Shown here piece by piece: positions 2,043 to 10,493 of a stretch of DNA of 64,000 nt. Every line of letters begins with the position of its first letter. Position 1 is the stretch's first letter. A program made the translations under genes and the position numbers. The notes beneath the pieces were generated by a model. That model was not told where the DNA came from and did no database searches. It was given only the letters and a program-made list of their open reading frames with translations. Source of the DNA: Methylophilus sp. QUAN (GTDB lineage: Bacteria > Pseudomonadota > Gammaproteobacteria > Burkholderiales > Methylophilaceae); contig NZ_JADKYT010000002.1 in NCBI RefSeq assembly GCF_015354445.1, forward strand, positions 62,001-126,000, in the 5' to 3' direction.

Positions 2043-3422
2043 ATGATGAAATCTCTCAGTCTTCAGTTCAAACTTAACCTGATCATTACCTTGTTATTGC
2101 TCGGCTTATTGCTGACCTGGGCAGTATCCGTGGTGAAGAATGCACGTGAAGACGTATTAGCAGAAGTAGATTCAAGTACCAACCTAGTGATTCATTTGCT
2201 GGATGCGGAAATTGCGCATTACATGACAGATTTTGGCTGGTTGAATCACAGTGAAAATGGTCAAACCAATCTGTTCAGGCTGGATGAGCTGACCAATATC
2301 CGCCATTTGAAGGTGGATTTTTTTGATATGAATGGCCGCTTGCGTGAGTCTAACCGCTCGACGCGATTGGTTCCTACCGGTGAAGAGCCCCCTGCGTGGT
2401 TTGTACGTCTGCTGGATATTTCCAGCGTGCTCAACGAACCCAAACGCAAGAATATTATTTTAAATGGGCGTTTTATCGGCGAGCTGGTGATTACGCCGGA
2501 CCCAAGTTTTGAGTTGCGCGAAATTTGGGATGACACCTCTGGTTTGCTGGCGATTGTCGGCCTGTTTGGTTTGAGTGTGTTGTTGTTTGTTTATTGGACG
2601 GTACGTGCGACGTTTAAACCGGTGAAGCAGATTATTCATGGCCTGAACCAGATTGAACGCGGCGAATATCAAAGCCGTTTGCCCGGGTTTGAGCAAGTGG
2701 AACTGAGTGAAATCAGTGATAAGTTCAACAGCATGGCCAGCACGCTGGAGCAAAGCATACGTAACAACCATCGTTTAACGCAGCAGATTATCCACTTGCA
2801 GGAAGAAGAACGTAAAAAGCTGGCGCGTGACCTGCATGATGAAATCGGCCAATACCTGACCGCCGTGCATGTAGATGCCAGTGCGCTGGTGGCAGCGAAA
2901 AAACTCAGCGTCGCACGTGAAAGCGCACAGGCAATTGCGCAGATCACACGGCAAATGATGGTGACTATTCAGGATATCCTGGCGCGTTTGCGCCCGCGTG
3001 TGCTGGATGAGTTGGGGCTTAGCCTGGCACTGGCCGAGTTGATTCATCACTGGCATGACCGTAACCGCGGCATCATGGTGGTGAATGCGATTTCAAACCA
3101 CCTGAGCCAACATGATGAGTCGGTGTCGGTGACGATCTACCGAATTTTGCAGGAATGCCTGACCAACATCAGCAAGCATGCCGCTGCGACACGCGTGACG
3201 ATAGAAGTGACTGAAAGTGAGCAGGGCTTGTATCTGCTGGTGGAGGATGACGGACGCGGGTTTGATACCAGTGTGCAAAGTCGCGGTTATGGTCTGGCGG
3301 GTATGCAGGAGCGGGTTGAGGGCTTGATGGGTAGCATGAACATTACGAGTGCGCCGGGCCAGGGCACGCGTATCGAAGTCCGTTTTCACACAACAGAAGG
3401 TTTTCAGGAAGCAGTGACATGA
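2043..3422 (+). CDS. MoxY-like membrane sensor histidine kinase
   Basis: This 459-residue kinase has transmembrane segments at about 11-31 and 167-188 flanking a periplasmic domain of about 135 residues. A HAMP region (188-240), a HisKA_3 dimerisation helix with phospho-acceptor His265 in ARDLHDEIGQ, and an HATPase domain (NISKHA N-box, VEDDGRGFD, GYGLAGMQERV) follow. Length and architecture match MoxY, the kinase controlling methanol oxidation in Paracoccus, whose periplasmic part belongs to the LapD/MoxY N-terminal family. That match is from general resemblance only. The stop overlaps the regulator gene by ATGA, so the two are translationally coupled. ATG codons at 2043 and 2046 are both possible starts. 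Confidence 0.88.
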   Translation: MMKSLSLQFKLNLIITLLLLGLLLTWAVSVVKNAREDVLAEVDSSTNLVIHLLDAEIAHYMTDFGWLNHSENGQTNLFRLDELTNIRHLKVDFFDMNGRLRESNRSTRLVPTGEEPPAWFVRLLDISSVLNEPKRKNIILNGRFIGELVITPDPSFELREIWDDTSGLLAIVGLFGLSVLLFVYWTVRATFKPVKQIIHGLNQIERGEYQSRLPGFEQVELSEISDKFNSMASTLEQSIRNNHRLTQQIIHLQEEERKKLARDLHDEIGQYLTAVHVDASALVAAKKLSVARESAQAIAQITRQMMVTIQDILARLRPRVLDELGLSLALAELIHHWHDRNRGIMVVNAISNHLSQHDESVSVTIYRILQECLTNISKHAAATRVTIEVTESEQGLYLLVEDDGRGFDTSVQSRGYGLAGMQERVEGLMGSMNITSAPGQGTRIEVRFHTTEGFQEAVT

Positions 3423-4057
3423 CAGTTAAAGTAGTGTTGGTGGATGACCACAGCGTGGTGCGTTCAGGGTTGCGTCGTTTGCTCGAAAGCCATAAGTCGA
3501 TTGAAATCGTGGCCGAGGCAGATACCGGGGAGTCGGCATATCAGGTGTACGGCGAGATTCTGCCAGATGTCATGCTGATGGATATTTCCATGCCCGGCAT
3601 GGGCGGCCTGGAAGCTGCCAAGCGTATTTTGCAGCGCTATCCGCAAGCCAGAATCGTGATTTTCTCCATGCACGAGGCGGTGTCGTTTGCCGCGCAGGCA
3701 CTTAAAACCGGTGTGAAGGGCTATGTGACTAAAACCGGTGTGGCAGAGGATTTGGTGCAGGCGGTGCTGGATGTGGCCAAAGGCCGCACCTTTTTGAGCC
3801 AGGATGTGGCACAGAAAGTCGCTTTGCAAACACTGATCGGCGACAGTAATCCTTTGCAGCAACTCACTTCGCGTGAGTTCGAAGTGTTCAGGCTGTTGGC
3901 CGAAGGCAAACGCGTGGAAGAGGTGGCCGATATGCTTAAAATCAGCCAGAAGACCGTGGCTAACTATTACACCCTAATCAAGCAGAAACTGTCGGTGAAC
4001 AGCCCGGTGGAAATGGTGCGGCTGGCCATGAAGCATGGCCTGATTGATGCCGCCTAG
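3419..4057 (+). CDS. NarL/LuxR-family response regulator (MoxX-like partner)
   Basis: This has 212 residues: an N-terminal receiver domain with acidic pair Asp9/Asp10, phospho-acceptor Asp55 (LMDISMPG) and a Lys in KGYVTK, then a C-terminal LuxR-type helix-turn-helix (LTSREFEVFRLLAEGK...QKTVANYYTLIKQKL). It overlaps the upstream kinase gene by four bases, so the two form one two-component system. Its targets cannot be read from the window; adjacency to PQQ-linked propellers and general likeness to MoxX suggest control of alcohol or methanol oxidation genes. The 3' end is only six bases from the convergent LysR gene, with no room for a terminator. Confidence 0.9.
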   Translation: MTVKVVLVDDHSVVRSGLRRLLESHKSIEIVAEADTGESAYQVYGEILPDVMLMDISMPGMGGLEAAKRILQRYPQARIVIFSMHEAVSFAAQALKTGVKGYVTKTGVAEDLVQAVLDVAKGRTFLSQDVAQKVALQTLIGDSNPLQQLTSREFEVFRLLAEGKRVEEVADMLKISQKTVANYYTLIKQKLSVNSPVEMVRLAMKHGLIDAA

Positions 4058-6998: not shown

Positions 6999-8315
6999 TT
7001 AGTCAACCGATAACAACCCATCCCAGCTGGTGGTGTAAGCAGGGCTTTTAAGCGCCTGCTTCATGCGCCAGGGTTGCTGGCGCTGTACTCCTTCGCTCGC
7101 CAGTTTGAGGGTGGCTCTGCCCATTTTTTGATTGATAGTGTCTAAGGCATGCATCAAGCGGTTTGCTTTCTCGTGCGAGTCCGTGGACTGGAACAAGTCT
7201 TGTTGCTGCGCCTCAGCTGTCACCAACTCGCCTAGTGATACACCTGCTTTCATATAGTCATAGCCTGGCCGGTAGATCTGCCGTAACGCCAGCAGGGCTG
7301 CCTGTACTAGTTGCAAGGTGTTGTTGGTGGCGATATGCAGTGGCAGGCGCAGGCTGTTATCGTATTGCTGTTGTGCATCGCGAAACGGGCTGGTGCGGAT
7401 ATAGACGTAGACACTGCCTGCATATAATCGGCGCTTGCGCAGCTTTTCGCCAGCGCGGGTTGTATATAGCGTGACGGCTTCAGCCAGGCTTTGCAAGTCA
7501 CGCACAGGATGGCCAAAGCTGCGCGTGCTCAGAATCTGCTGCTGTGGGCCGCGTATTTGTTCTAACTCAAGGCAAGTCGTGCCATTCAATTCGCGCACGG
7601 TTTTCTCCATCACCACGTTAAACCGCTGGCGCATGGTCGCCGCATCGCTCATCTTGAGGTCATAGGCCGTATGAATGTCTGCATCATGCATGTGCTTGCT
7701 CAAATTGCGGCCTATGCCCCAAACATTGCCGACGTCGATATCGCGCAAGGTATCGTCTACCGATGTGATTGGCATGGTGTTGAAGTTACAGACGCCATTC
7801 AACGTGATGTGTTGTTTGGCACAATGATTCGCCAGTTTTGCCAGCGTTTTGCTGCTGGCAATGCCCACACACACTGGCAAGCCCGTCGATTGCAGCACTG
7901 TTTGCCTGAGTTGCTGTGCATAGGCAGTCAGGTCTCGCCTGGAGAACGCAGTCAAGTCGAGAAATGACTCGTCAATTGAGTACACCTCCTGTGACGGGCT
8001 AAACTGCCGCAGCACCGACATCACACGGTTGCTCATGTCTGCGTACAAAGCATAATTTGACGAATAGGCAATCACACCCTCTTGCTCGGCATACTTGCGT
8101 ACCTTGAACCACGGCGCACCCATGGGGATGTCCAGCGCTTTGGCTTCTGCGCTACGGGAGATAATGCAACCATCGTTATTGCTGAGCACCACCACCGGGC
8201 GGTCACGCAGTTTGGGGTTAAACACACGTTCACAACTGACGTAAAAATTATTCACATCGACAAGCGCCATCGCCCTGATGGTAGGTTGATTGAATGCTGG
8301 CATATTTATTTGCAT
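6999..8315 (-). CDS. umuC: Y-family DNA polymerase V catalytic subunit UmuC
   Basis: This is 438 residues, close to the usual 420. It shows the Y-family palm motifs ALVDVNNFYVSCERVF near the N-terminus and YSIDESFLDL around residue 115-125, whose acidic residues bind catalytic metal, and VCVGIASSKTLAKLANHCAK. The C-terminal little finger and UmuC-specific tail are present. The start could be at 8315 or at an internal ATG (8270) preceding ALVDVNN. UmuC with processed UmuD carries out error-prone translesion synthesis. The gene is separated from umuD by 274 bases carrying a pqqA gene on the other strand, an unusual break of the normal umuDC operon. Confidence 0.93.
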   Translation of the reverse strand: MQINMPAFNQPTIRAMALVDVNNFYVSCERVFNPKLRDRPVVVLSNNDGCIISRSAEAKALDIPMGAPWFKVRKYAEQEGVIAYSSNYALYADMSNRVMSVLRQFSPSQEVYSIDESFLDLTAFSRRDLTAYAQQLRQTVLQSTGLPVCVGIASSKTLAKLANHCAKQHITLNGVCNFNTMPITSVDDTLRDIDVGNVWGIGRNLSKHMHDADIHTAYDLKMSDAATMRQRFNVVMEKTVRELNGTTCLELEQIRGPQQQILSTRSFGHPVRDLQSLAEAVTLYTTRAGEKLRKRRLYAGSVYVYIRTSPFRDAQQQYDNSLRLPLHIATNNTLQLVQAALLALRQIYRPGYDYMKAGVSLGELVTAEAQQQDLFQSTDSHEKANRLMHALDTINQKMGRATLKLASEGVQRQQPWRMKQALKSPAYTTSWDGLLSVD

Positions 8316-8448
8316 GAGGGGTGTTTCATGAAATTCCCTAAACGCTGTTCATGATCCGCAATAGCAGGATTGTTGCGGCATGGGCCGATAATACATTCAC
8401 ACGAGCCAGACATGGGGTCGGTTCGGGGAATCAAAAAAGGAGATCATT

Positions 8449-8520
8449 ATGTGGACTAAACCAGCTGCTACCGAAATGCGTTTCGGCTTTGAAGTAACCA
8501 TGTATGTCATGAACAAATAA
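8449..8520 (+). CDS. pqqA: Coenzyme PQQ precursor peptide PqqA, copy 1
   Basis: This 23-codon gene has a strong ribosome-binding site (AAAGGAG) seven bases before the ATG. The peptide carries the invariant Glu15-x3-Tyr19 pair (EVTMY) whose side chains are cross-linked by PqqE and become the PQQ skeleton, and the MWTKP start typical of short PqqA peptides. It is the precursor of pyrroloquinoline quinone, cofactor of methanol dehydrogenase. No pqqBCDE follows: it is an orphan copy with its own terminator, lying between umuD and umuC on the opposite strand. A second gene at 10214-10285 encodes the identical peptide using different synonymous codons. Confidence 0.95.
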   Translation: MWTKPAATEMRFGFEVTMYVMNK

Positions 8521-8540
8521 ATTTATCTGCGTTCATGAAA

Positions 8541-8576
8541 CCCGGTTGCCCATGATCAATGGGTGCCGGGTTTTTT
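8541..8576 (+). terminator. Intrinsic terminator of pqqA copy 1
   Basis: A hairpin CCCGG-TT-GCCCAT / ATGGGT-G-CCGGG with a short loop is followed by six T residues, 20 bases after the pqqA stop. It makes a transcript of roughly 150-200 nt likely and insulates the opposite-strand umuD 3' end. Confidence 0.85.
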
Positions 8577-8589
8577 ATTGCCCTTGATG

Positions 8590-9216
8590 CTACCGGAATC
8601 GCCTGAATGAGCCTATCACTACCCCCCAGACTTCAAACTGCATGGGCGCTTGAATCAGGATAGGGGGGTAGCGGCCAGACGAGTTTGCTGGCAACAATTT
8701 TGGTGTGCCATCTTGTTGTTTGGCCAGCGTTTTAATGGTGAACTCGCCATCTATCATTGCCAGCACAATATCGCCGACCACGGGTGATTTACCTTTATCT
8801 ACGACCGCTTTATCGCCTGGCATCAAGCCAGCTTCTATCATCGACTCACCCTGTATGGTGACAAAAAAAGTGGTGTCGGCCTGATCAATCAAATATGCGC
8901 TAGGATCCAGTCGCTGCTCAACATGATCATCAGCCGGGGAAGGAAACCCGGCGGGTATCTTGGATGCATAGAGCGGCACCGCCATCGGTTGCGCTGCACT
9001 GTCAGGAAACGCGAACACTTGCGGACTGTCCAGACTCCCCCTGTTTTGCCGTTGTTGCTGTTGTTTGGCATAGGCCGCCAGCAAGTCACCAATCACGGTT
9101 TTCTGGCTGACAGGCACACGCATCACGGTGGTGGCTTCCTGGTATAAGCCAGAGCCGAGTTTACGGCCCGCGCCCGCCCGTCTGCCACCTGCTTTTTTCA
9201 CATATTGATCGCTCAT
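8590..9216 (-). CDS. umuD: UmuD-like S24 family autoprotease
   Basis: This is 208 residues, longer than the about 140 of E. coli UmuD. The C-terminal part is a LexA/UmuD S24 domain: an Ala-Gly cleavage site in SKIPAGFPSP (near residue 88), the catalytic Ser in IQGESMIEAG (near 125) and catalytic Lys in EFTIKTL (near 160). The extra N-terminus (GGRRAGAGRK, then a VMRVPVSQ segment) is basic and could bind DNA or RNA. The protein would self-cleave on RecA filaments and activate UmuC. I see no clear SOS box upstream. It lies head-to-tail with umuC but separated from it by pqqA. Confidence 0.88.
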   Translation of the reverse strand: MSDQYVKKAGGRRAGAGRKLGSGLYQEATTVMRVPVSQKTVIGDLLAAYAKQQQQRQNRGSLDSPQVFAFPDSAAQPMAVPLYASKIPAGFPSPADDHVEQRLDPSAYLIDQADTTFFVTIQGESMIEAGLMPGDKAVVDKGKSPVVGDIVLAMIDGEFTIKTLAKQQDGTPKLLPANSSGRYPPILIQAPMQFEVWGVVIGSFRRFR

Positions 9217-9320
9217 TTGATTATTGTAACAAAAATTATTGCAGGCCAGCGTAAAGAAAAAGATGCAAATGGTGTTGAGTCAGCCGTTATACTGTTGCGC
9301 TTTCAACGGATGGGTGTCGC

Positions 9321-10136
9321 ATGGACTGGATACAGTTATTTATTGAGCAATATGCGCTGTTTTGCCTGATCGGCGTGGTGGTCGGCGTATTGTCTGGGTT
9401 GCTTGGCATTGGTGGCGGCATTGTGTTGGTGCCGATGTTGCATGCCATGCTGGTGGCCAAGGGCTTTTCGGCTGATGCGGCTTTTCATATGGCGCTGGCG
9501 ACCTCGATGGCCTGCATCGTGTTTACTTCCCTTTCCAGTATTTTGGCGCATCATAAAAACCAGAATATCGTCTGGCCGTATGTCTGGGCCATGGTGCCGA
9601 TGGCGTTTATTGGCTCTTTGCTGGCAACCCTGGTGGCGATTCACCTCGATGCGTTTTACTTGACGCTGTTTTTTGCCACGTTTACTTTTTTTGCGGCGAT
9701 CCAGTTATTCCTGGATCGCAAACCCACCCAGCACAAAGTACCGGGCAAGGTGGAAATCAGCCTGGTGTCATTGCTGATTGGTGTGATCTCTGCGCTGGTG
9801 TCCATTGGTGGTGGCACATTGACCGTACCTTACCTGGCAATGCGCAATGTGTCGGTGAAACAGGCGATCGGGACGTCGGCGGTACTAGGCTTCCCGATTG
9901 CATTGGCGAGCACAGTGAGTTATTTGCAAGACGCTGCCAGACAGGCGACACATGCGCCAGATACATTTGGCCTGCTCTATTTGCCTGCCATTATGCTGAT
10001 TACACCGCTTAGCGTGTTATTTGCCCCGGCAGGCGTGGCGCTGACCAAGCGTTTGCCGGTCAAGGTATTAAAACGTATTTTTGCCGTCTTTTTGATGGGT
10101 GTGAGCCTCAATTTGCTGTGGTCGCAGTTGGCTTGA
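9321..10136 (+). CDS. TauE/SafE (TSUP) family sulfite/anion exporter-like permease
   Basis: This is 271 residues with about eight hydrophobic segments in two homologous halves, each bearing the family's glycine-rich motif: LSGLLGIGGGIVLVPML near residue 30 and LVSIGGGTLTVPYL near residue 155, and the KQAIGTSAVLGFP motif. TSUP proteins move sulfite, sulfoacetate and related organic anions across the inner membrane; the particular substrate is not readable. A bidirectional terminator follows. It is monocistronic, transcribed away from umuD. Confidence 0.88.
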   Translation: MDWIQLFIEQYALFCLIGVVVGVLSGLLGIGGGIVLVPMLHAMLVAKGFSADAAFHMALATSMACIVFTSLSSILAHHKNQNIVWPYVWAMVPMAFIGSLLATLVAIHLDAFYLTLFFATFTFFAAIQLFLDRKPTQHKVPGKVEISLVSLLIGVISALVSIGGGTLTVPYLAMRNVSVKQAIGTSAVLGFPIALASTVSYLQDAARQATHAPDTFGLLYLPAIMLITPLSVLFAPAGVALTKRLPVKVLKRIFAVFLMGVSLNLLWSQLA

Positions 10137-10154
10137 GTCTACTGCTGCAGGCAA

Positions 10155-10186
10155 TAAAAAACCGCCGTATTCCGGCGGTTTTTTAT
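10155..10186. terminator. Bidirectional terminator between the TSUP gene and pqqA copy 2
   Basis: AAAAAACCGCCG-TATT-CCGGCGGTTTTTT is a hairpin of about six G/C pairs flanked by A and T tracts on both sides, so it can end the plus-strand permease transcript and the minus-strand pqqA transcript. Confidence 0.88.
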
Positions 10187-10213
10187 TCAATCTATCTGAA
10201 TAGATAAGACTGA

Positions 10214-10285
10214 TTATTTGTTCATGACGTACATAGTCACTTCAAAGCCAAAACGCATTTCAGTCGCAGCTGGTTTAGTCCACAT
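10214..10285 (-). CDS. pqqA: Coenzyme PQQ precursor peptide PqqA, copy 2
   Basis: This minus-strand 23-codon gene has a ribosome-binding site (AAAGGAG) before its ATG. The encoded peptide is identical at every residue to copy 1 at 8449-8520, including Glu15 and Tyr19, but six codons differ, all synonymously (for example GCT/GCG, ACC/ACT, TTC/TTT, GTA/GTG, TAT/TAC). The flanking sequences are not obviously related, so this is not a fresh segmental duplication; the peptide is held constant by selection. It is also an orphan copy without pqqBCDE, and ends at the bidirectional terminator 10155-10186. Confidence 0.95.
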   Translation of the reverse strand: MWTKPAATEMRFGFEVTMYVMNK

Positions 10286-10309: not shown

Positions 10310-10331
10310 AGTACATCGTGCTTGATGTACT
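10310..10331 (-). promoter_or_regulatory. Inverted repeat in the leader of pqqA copy 2
   Basis: AGTACATC-GTGCTT-GATGTACT is a perfect 8-bp inverted repeat about 25 bases upstream of the pqqA start codon. It could be an operator or an RNA hairpin in the leader. It is absent upstream of copy 1, so the two copies may be controlled differently. Confidence 0.35.
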
Positions 10332-10493
10332 TGTATGACTGTCACTATACGCCAGTGTTTCAAAACCACCCTGAAGCCAATCCGTAAAAACGGCTCATGA
10401 TTTTACGTAGTTTTAGCGGCGCGATTTTGTTGTCGTTGTGCGCTGGCAGCGTAAAATGTAGTGACACAACAAGTCGGAAAACGAGGGTGTAAC

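What the first reader, a model, noticed from the sequence alone, without database searches (positions are those of the whole stretch)
8449..10285. Two orphan pqqA genes encode the identical peptide with different codons
Genes at 8449-8520 (plus) and 10214-10285 (minus) encode the same 23-residue PqqA. The six codon differences are all synonymous and the flanks look unrelated, so the pair is old and the peptide is under strong selection. Neither is next to pqqBCDE. Multiple pqqA copies are, to my recollection, reported in Methylovorus, so the phenomenon is known, but this pair 1.7 kb apart, with distinct leaders (only copy 2 has an inverted repeat), suggests gene dosage or differential control of PQQ precursor supply.
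Basis: partly seen in the sequence, partly recalled or inferred. Interest (0 to 1): 0.7.

Follow-up and report, generated by a model that had tools for sequence, protein, structure and literature searches.

The report
Scattered PQQ-precursor genes sharing one switch
This methanol-eating bacterium (a Methylophilus) keeps five scattered genes for one identical 23-residue peptide, the raw material of the cofactor PQQ; many copies are already known in its family, but most copies examined in the genus carry a similar DNA motif at about the same distance upstream, a motif also found before PQQ genes in related bacteria, which may be the binding site of a shared regulator.

Summary
In detail: 8449-8520 (+) and 10214-10285 (-) encode the identical PqqA with six synonymous differences. 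They are two of five identical copies in this 3.15-Mb Methylophilus genome, none beside its single pqqBCDE. Multi-copy pqqA with one pqqBCDE is published for Methylophilaceae (3-12 copies, PMC4109929), so the phenomenon is known.

New, by comparison: (1) in 15 of 21 Methylophilus genomes with pqqB, no pqqA precedes pqqB. (2) The convergent pair is kept in 14 of 17 genomes examined; copy 2 is homogenised with a copy 490 kb away. (3) Most copies carry TCATGA repeats about 120 nt upstream. The exact palindrome TCATGA-WDW-TCATGA occurs 54 times in 22 genomes (reversed pattern 0): 21 before pqqA, 13 before pqqB, 13 before xoxJ-like genes, 7 elsewhere. It recurs before pqqA in other betaproteobacterial families, but in none of 27 loci outside the order. 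(4) There, 14 of 15 longer box-bearing loci hold a LuxR-type response regulator whose relative exists in this genome. Six literature searches showed no report of the box. Binding by that regulator is inference.

The parts
8449..8520 (+). pqqA copy 1 (23 aa)
   Evidence: one of five identical copies in the genome
10214..10285 (-). pqqA copy 2 (23 aa)
8326..8354 (+). operator of copy 1: TCATGA at offsets 0 and 23, middle site degenerate; starts 123 nt before the ATG
   Evidence: same form in 13 of 14 orthologs, not in G017
10381..10409 (-). operator of copy 2: TACGTAAAATCATGAG..., middle TCATGA intact, outer sites degenerate; starts 124 nt before the ATG
   Evidence: TCATGA kept in 15 of 15 orthologous copies (14 genomes)
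8387..8394 (+). -10-like GATAATAC of copy 1
   Evidence: by inspection of orthologs; not listed by the sigma-70 scan
10343..10351 (-). -10-like CGTATAGTG of copy 2
   Evidence: by inspection; not listed
8402..8425 (+). inverted repeat in the leader of copy 1
   Evidence: alifold -7.9, 1 of 100 column shuffles as low; 1 of 8 pairs with a double change
10311..10330 (-). inverted repeat in the leader of copy 2 (GTACATC...GATGTAC)
   Evidence: alifold -2.29, 0 of 100 shuffles as low; 1 of 6 pairs with a double change
8541..8576 (+). terminator-like hairpin and T run after copy 1
   Evidence: sequence; one search lists part of it
10154..10186 (-). terminator-like hairpin after copy 2, apparently shared with the convergent TauE gene
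   Evidence: sequence; one search lists it on the + strand only

Best explanation
The pair belongs to a dispersed set of five stand-alone pqqA mini-genes (operator, -10, short leader, 23-codon gene, terminator) that together are the only pqqA found in this genome, because pqqBCDE has none. Shown by sequence: five identical copies, absence from the operon, conservation of the loci, and a shared box upstream of pqqA, before pqqB, and between xoxF-like and xoxJ-like genes.
For: Five copies. One pqqBCDE, without pqqA; no pqqA within 330 nt before pqqB in 15 of 21 genomes of the genus with pqqB. Box with at most 3 mismatches in the last 190 nt in 72 of 107 copies against 20 of 856 control windows; TCATGA in 100 of 107 against 45 of 856. 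Exact palindrome 1-4 times per genome in 22 of 22 genomes, reversed control 0 in all: of 54 places 21 before pqqA, 13 before pqqB, 13 of 13 remaining core-clade intergenic sites before a xoxJ-like gene, 7 elsewhere. Other Methylophilaceae genera: 29 of 30 loci (at most 3 mismatches; reversed 0 of 30, control windows 6 of 150). Other families of the order: 16 of 25 loci (at most 2; reversed 0 of 25, controls 2 of 125), 18 of 25 after two misplaced starts were corrected. Linked response regulator in 14 of 15 longer loci with the box and 1 of 5 without, that one having a 1-mismatch box. These regulators are 61.7-72.2% identical to the one at C1:1479074 and share SP(R/S)T(V/I)GTHLYN in the DNA-binding helix.
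Against: No binding or expression data. In this genome the regulator is not linked to a pqqA and has no exact box within the 8 kb fetched; none of 30 loci of other Methylophilaceae genera showed it within 1.5 kb. The boxes of copies 1 and 2 score poorly as palindromes (3 and 4 mismatches). 35 of 107 copies have 4 or more mismatches, 7 lack TCATGA. One box locus (L348) shows no such regulator in 11 kb. In the AT-rich streamlined genus the reversed pattern also occurs (7 places in 6 of 21 genomes, against 13 places in 11 of 21). The genome has 15 matches to the LuxR DNA-binding domain, so other regulators are possible. Related genomes are not independent.
Confidence: 0.65

Rival explanations
1. 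Differential control: each copy answers a different signal, the shared box being only one input.
For: Boxes differ by locus (copy 1 has sites 0 and 23, copy 2 has site 9, the C1:231198 copy both halves). [quoted passage not shown] 2015 as cited in PMC6520949).
Against: Same kind of box at a similar position in most copies.
Confidence: 0.4
2. The box is bound by another regulator: the MoxX-like response regulator in this window (3419-4057), another LuxR-type regulator, or a Fur-family protein (one box, TAATGATAATCATTA, looks like the Fur consensus, which is recalled).
For: The window pair lies between the mxa cluster and the pqqA pair; the second of two LuxR-type regulators in the streamlined genome G022 resembles it (41%).
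Against: 15 of 16 response regulators found by my signature in the 20 longer loci of other families are of the other type, closer to C1:1479074 than to the window one. Fur was not tested.
Confidence: 0.25
3. Redundant duplicates maintained by gene conversion with no advantage of dosage.
For: Copy 2 and the C2:562282 copy are more alike within genomes than permuted (flanks 0.840 against 0.770, 0 of 5000; codon differences 1.90 against 2.66, 5 of 2000).
Against: 15 of 21 genomes have no operonic copy, loci are kept across the genus, and boxes are kept while flanks drift.
Confidence: 0.1
4. Some orphan PqqA serves another role, such as lanthanide uptake.
For: PMC11317620 raises this for orphan pqqA of Methylorubrum; boxes lie before xoxJ-like genes.
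Against: The peptide is identical in all five copies, so separate roles would have to come from expression alone.
Confidence: 0.05

Closest known systems
Multi-copy pqqA in Methylophilaceae (PMC4109929, table and text passages read)
   Same: Several pqqA copies (3 to 12 in nine genomes), usually one set of the other pqq genes.
   Different: The passages read do not mention a shared operator, loss of the operonic copy or homogenisation.
Five pqqA of Methylovorus sp. MP688 (Ge et al. 2015; not read, seen only as cited in PMC11317620, PMC9851590, PMC6520949)
   Same: Five copies; PqqA supply limiting; copies respond differently.
   Different: Whether a shared operator was described there is unknown to me; the paper is not in the library searched.
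Five-copy strain FJNU-6/A26 (PMC9851590, passages)
   Same: Five pqqA copies, unequally expressed.
   Different: Two of its copies sit in operons (pqqABCDE, pqqADE); here none does.
AgmR/ErbR control of pqq genes in Pseudomonas (PMC12997753, passages)
   Same: A response regulator thought to control the pqq operon.
   Different: The terms for a binding motif that I searched in that paper were absent; the box was found before pqqA in 0 of 14 loci of other orders of the class.
Orphan pqqA of Methylorubrum and of Beijerinckiaceae RH AL1 (PMC11317620, PMC10848612, passages)
   Same: Several or orphan pqqA copies whose expression changes with lanthanides.
   Different: The box was found in 0 of 13 loci from other classes; these strains themselves were not checked.

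Membership tests
PqqA (TIGR02107 / PF08042) | Score above the curated cut-off | tested here: met
PqqA (TIGR02107 / PF08042) | Glu and Tyr to be cross-linked, E-x3-Y (spacing recalled) | tested here: met
   EVTMY in both copies
PqqA (TIGR02107 / PF08042) | Processed to PQQ | not testable with these tools
   needs mutants or mass spectrometry; pqqBCDE present
Classic pqqABCDE operon | pqqA directly before pqqB | tested here: not met
   pqqB is preceded by a box but no pqqA
Multi-copy pqqA of Methylophilaceae | Several pqqA, one pqqBCDE | tested here: met
Two-component PQQ regulon | Common operator before several pqq genes | tested here: met
   copies 1 and 2 have degenerate forms
Two-component PQQ regulon | Regulator linked to box-bearing pqqA | tested here: inconclusive
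   14 of 15 longer loci of other families; not linked in this genome nor in 30 loci of other genera of its family
Two-component PQQ regulon | Regulator binds the box | not testable with these tools
   needs a binding assay

The most novel reading that the evidence does not exclude
A PQQ box, TCATGA-W3-TCATGA with a further half-site at offset 23, is the operator of an old betaproteobacterial PQQ regulon run by one conserved histidine kinase and LuxR-type response regulator. In Methylophilus it drives dispersed pqqA cassettes, pqqBCDE and xoxJ, which ties cofactor supply to methanol oxidation and lets pqqA leave its operon and multiply.
Probability: 0.55. Interest if true: 0.65.

Novelty: new variant of a known kind. 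Interest (0 to 1): 0.5.

Why it matters
How cells match PQQ supply to the demand of methanol dehydrogenases is, to my knowledge, poorly understood, and no operator for pqq genes turned up in my searches. If box and regulator hold, one deletion strain and one binding assay would test PQQ control across many betaproteobacteria, including streamlined relatives with 1.3-Mb genomes, and would explain how dispersed copies can replace the operonic gene.

Tried and rejected
Recent duplication of the two window copies: rejected, flanks unrelated and the pair conserved. A known leader RNA family: Rfam gave nothing at gathering score in the window, and 13 matches, all below their gathering scores, around the five copies. 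Leader hairpin as a universal feature: not supported, the C1:231198 locus has none and covariation is weak. General concerted evolution of codons: only slight (4.74 against 5.02 differences, 0 of 2000 permutations as low), clear only for copy 2 with the C2:562282 copy. mxaF promoter: I saw no box in the 280 nt printed around the start used. Plasmid origin: no match. An exact box elsewhere in the window: none; at up to 3 mismatches 9 hits against 5.5 expected, one of them the operator of copy 1.

Full report
What was claimed and checked. Two 23-codon genes, 8449-8520 (+) and 10214-10285 (-), encode the same peptide MWTKPAATEMRFGFEVTMYVMNK, above the cut-offs of TIGR02107 and PF08042. Six codons differ, all silently. 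Copy 1 lies between a umuC-like gene (6999-8315, -) and a umuD-like gene (8590-9216, -); copy 2 converges on a TauE-type gene (9321-10136, +).

The whole genome. The window is C2:62001-126000 of a 3.15-Mb assembly; five copies encode the identical peptide: C2:70449, C2:72217, C2:562282, C1:231130 and C1:765341. One locus passes the PqqE cut-off and one the PqqB cut-off; the ORFs at C2:639943-643177 match PqqB, PqqC, PqqD and PqqE. No pqqA lies before pqqB. The six named relatives found with the TauE protein of the window are all Methylophilus.

The genus. All 22 genomes hold 4 to 10 matches to the peptide, some of them partial. pqqB was found in 21 of 22. In six of these 21 (G009, G012, G013, G014, G019, G020) a pqqA, in G014 partly masked, lies directly before pqqB; in 15 none lies within 330 nt (for four of the six the script failed and I used the coordinates). 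I took 107 copies from 17 genomes, leaving out G013, G014, G018, G019 and G021 as fragmented or less complete. By flanking sequence they fall into 15 groups, the pair counted as one: the pair in 14 genomes, always convergent, starts 1.1 to 4.3 kb apart; the C1:231198 locus in 17 of 17; the C1:765341 locus in 13; the C2:562350 locus in 11. 86 of 107 peptides equal the window one. In three genomes of the other subclade (G009, G012, G020) residue 4 is Thr or Ala in every copy, also at the locus shared by both subclades.

Copy 2 and its sibling. Copy 2 and the C2:562282 copy share 128 nt upstream and about 60 nt downstream. Over these flanks the two loci are more alike within a genome (mean 0.840 over 11 genomes) than when genomes are permuted (0.770; 0 of 5000). 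In this genome the figure is 0.96, above the closest ortholog of copy 2 (0.91); the same holds in 5 of 11 genomes, not in the other 6. This points to occasional gene conversion between these loci. The pair in the window shows no such likeness.

The box. Reading orthologous upstream regions side by side showed TCATGA repeats about 120 nt before the ATG in loci whose flanks are otherwise unrelated. In 190-nt windows a TCATGA-W3-TCATGA match with at most 3 mismatches occurs in 72 of 107 copies and in 20 of 856 control windows further upstream; at least one TCATGA in 100 of 107 and 45 of 856. The copies are related, so these are not independent counts. Weighted by locus (101 of 107 copies placed), positions just outside the searched pattern (C before, G after) and a further module at offsets 20 to 30 are also conserved; columns 0 to 14 of that table are inflated by the choice of register. 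Copy 1 has half-sites at offsets 0 and 23, copy 2 at offset 9.

The box as a genome feature. The exact palindrome (spacer W-D-W) occurs at three places in this genome. All 22 genomes of the genus have 1 to 4 places, 54 in all, with 0 for the reversed pattern. By coordinates 21 lie before a pqqA and 13 before pqqB. Thirteen more, one each in the 13 genomes that also have an exact box at pqqB, lie before a xoxJ-like (MoxJ-related) gene; in 12 a PQQ-dependent methanol/ethanol-type dehydrogenase gene, read as xoxF, precedes it, and in G021 the contig ends. The Xox names are inference; the dehydrogenase ORF is partial in the stretches. The remaining seven lie elsewhere: G005 (one), G009 (two), G012, G013 (two), G020.

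Beyond the genus. All 121 Methylophilaceae genomes searched (at least 90% complete) have pqqA, 1 to 12 matches each. For 30 loci of other genera the box lies within 200 nt with at most 3 mismatches in 29, exact in 16; the reversed pattern gives 0 of 30 and control windows 6 of 150. In the streamlined genus (1.3 Mb) the form TMATGA-W3-TCATKA occurs at 13 places in 11 of 21 genomes, but the reversed pattern also at 7 places in 6 genomes; 8 of the 11 places fetched precede pqqA at a distance of about 100 nt. Further pqqA copies there have boxes of 3 to 5 mismatches. In the order, 29 of 120 genomes have pqqA. Of the 25 loci outside the family, one per genome, 16 have at most 2 mismatches, against 0 of 25 reversed and 2 of 125 control windows (for 13 of 25 the start was assumed). 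A recheck placed two of the misses properly and found boxes (L256 exact, L259 one mismatch), giving 18 of 25; L271 could not be placed. Outside the order, 0 of 14 loci of other orders of the class and 0 of 13 of other classes have 4 mismatches or fewer within 250 nt.

The regulator. A LuxR-type response regulator lies within 1.5 kb of pqqA in 6 of these 25 loci and in 0 of 30 loci of other Methylophilaceae genera (by signature). I then fetched 20 longer loci: 13 with two pqqA about 5 kb apart (in five of them the regulator had already been seen) and seven for contrast. Fifteen have a box (T[AC]ATGA-W3-TCAT[GT]A), and 14 of these hold a regulator of this type; of five without, one has it, and that locus has a 1-mismatch box (Fisher 0.005, relatedness ignored). 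These 20 loci hold 25 boxes in 230,920 bp and no reversed match. The 15 regulators are 61.7 to 72.2% identical to the one at C1:1479074 of this genome and 44 to 50% to the MoxX-like one in this window; the DNA-binding helix reads SPRT(V/I)GTHLYN in 14 and SPSTVGTHLYN in one. The kinase before it in this genome has HAMP, HisKA_3 and HATPase_c domains and a sub-threshold LapD/MoxY match. Four streamlined genomes keep two or three LuxR-type domain matches each, one of this type in each.

How it likely works. Shown: gene set, box, positions, linkage in other families. Inferred: activation by the regulator, because the box starts about 60 nt upstream of the -10-like element; dosage as the reason for copies, from the stoichiometric use of PqqA (general knowledge) and from reports on Methylovorus (as cited).

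Literature. Multi-copy pqqA is in print (PMC4109929 passages). For a pqqA operator or regulator I searched, and for MoxX/MoxY, and saw no such report; only listings were seen, except passages of PMC12997753 and PMC5120137. Subscription papers are mostly not held, so absence is weak evidence.

Noticed in passing
window 2043-4057: MoxY/MoxX-like histidine kinase and LuxR-type response regulator, preceded by two YVTN beta-propeller genes (4-831, 909-1946); an mxa cluster (mxaF, mxaJ, mxaG by model; followers by recall) ends about 1 kb before the window (L123).
   Followed up: partly
window 6999-9216: pqqA copy 1 sits in opposite orientation between umuC-like and umuD-like genes, splitting what would be a umuDC operon.
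   Followed up: no
L049 (G001:C4:12413-): A diverged pqqA-like gene (MWAKPAATEMRFGLEATLYLMNKSCALRE) with a poor box, at the locus where other genomes have a normal copy; perhaps a decaying copy.
   Followed up: no
L233, L234, L235, L237, L238: In the streamlined genus two pqqA copies lie in tandem about 200 nt apart, with different peptides (MWTKP..MNK and MWTQP..CNK/R) and poor boxes.
   Followed up: no
L330-L332, L335-L344: In other betaproteobacterial families two divergent pqqA genes about 5 kb apart flank a response regulator (and, in the three read in full, its kinase), with TonB-receptor-like ORFs next to some.
   Followed up: partly
L219, L222, L230, L362: In four genomes of the second subclade an exact box lies beside a gene for a 225-231-aa secreted-looking protein of unknown role.
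   Followed up: no
L223, L360: In two genomes an exact box lies about 400 nt upstream of a ThiG-like ORF (name by recall).
   Followed up: no
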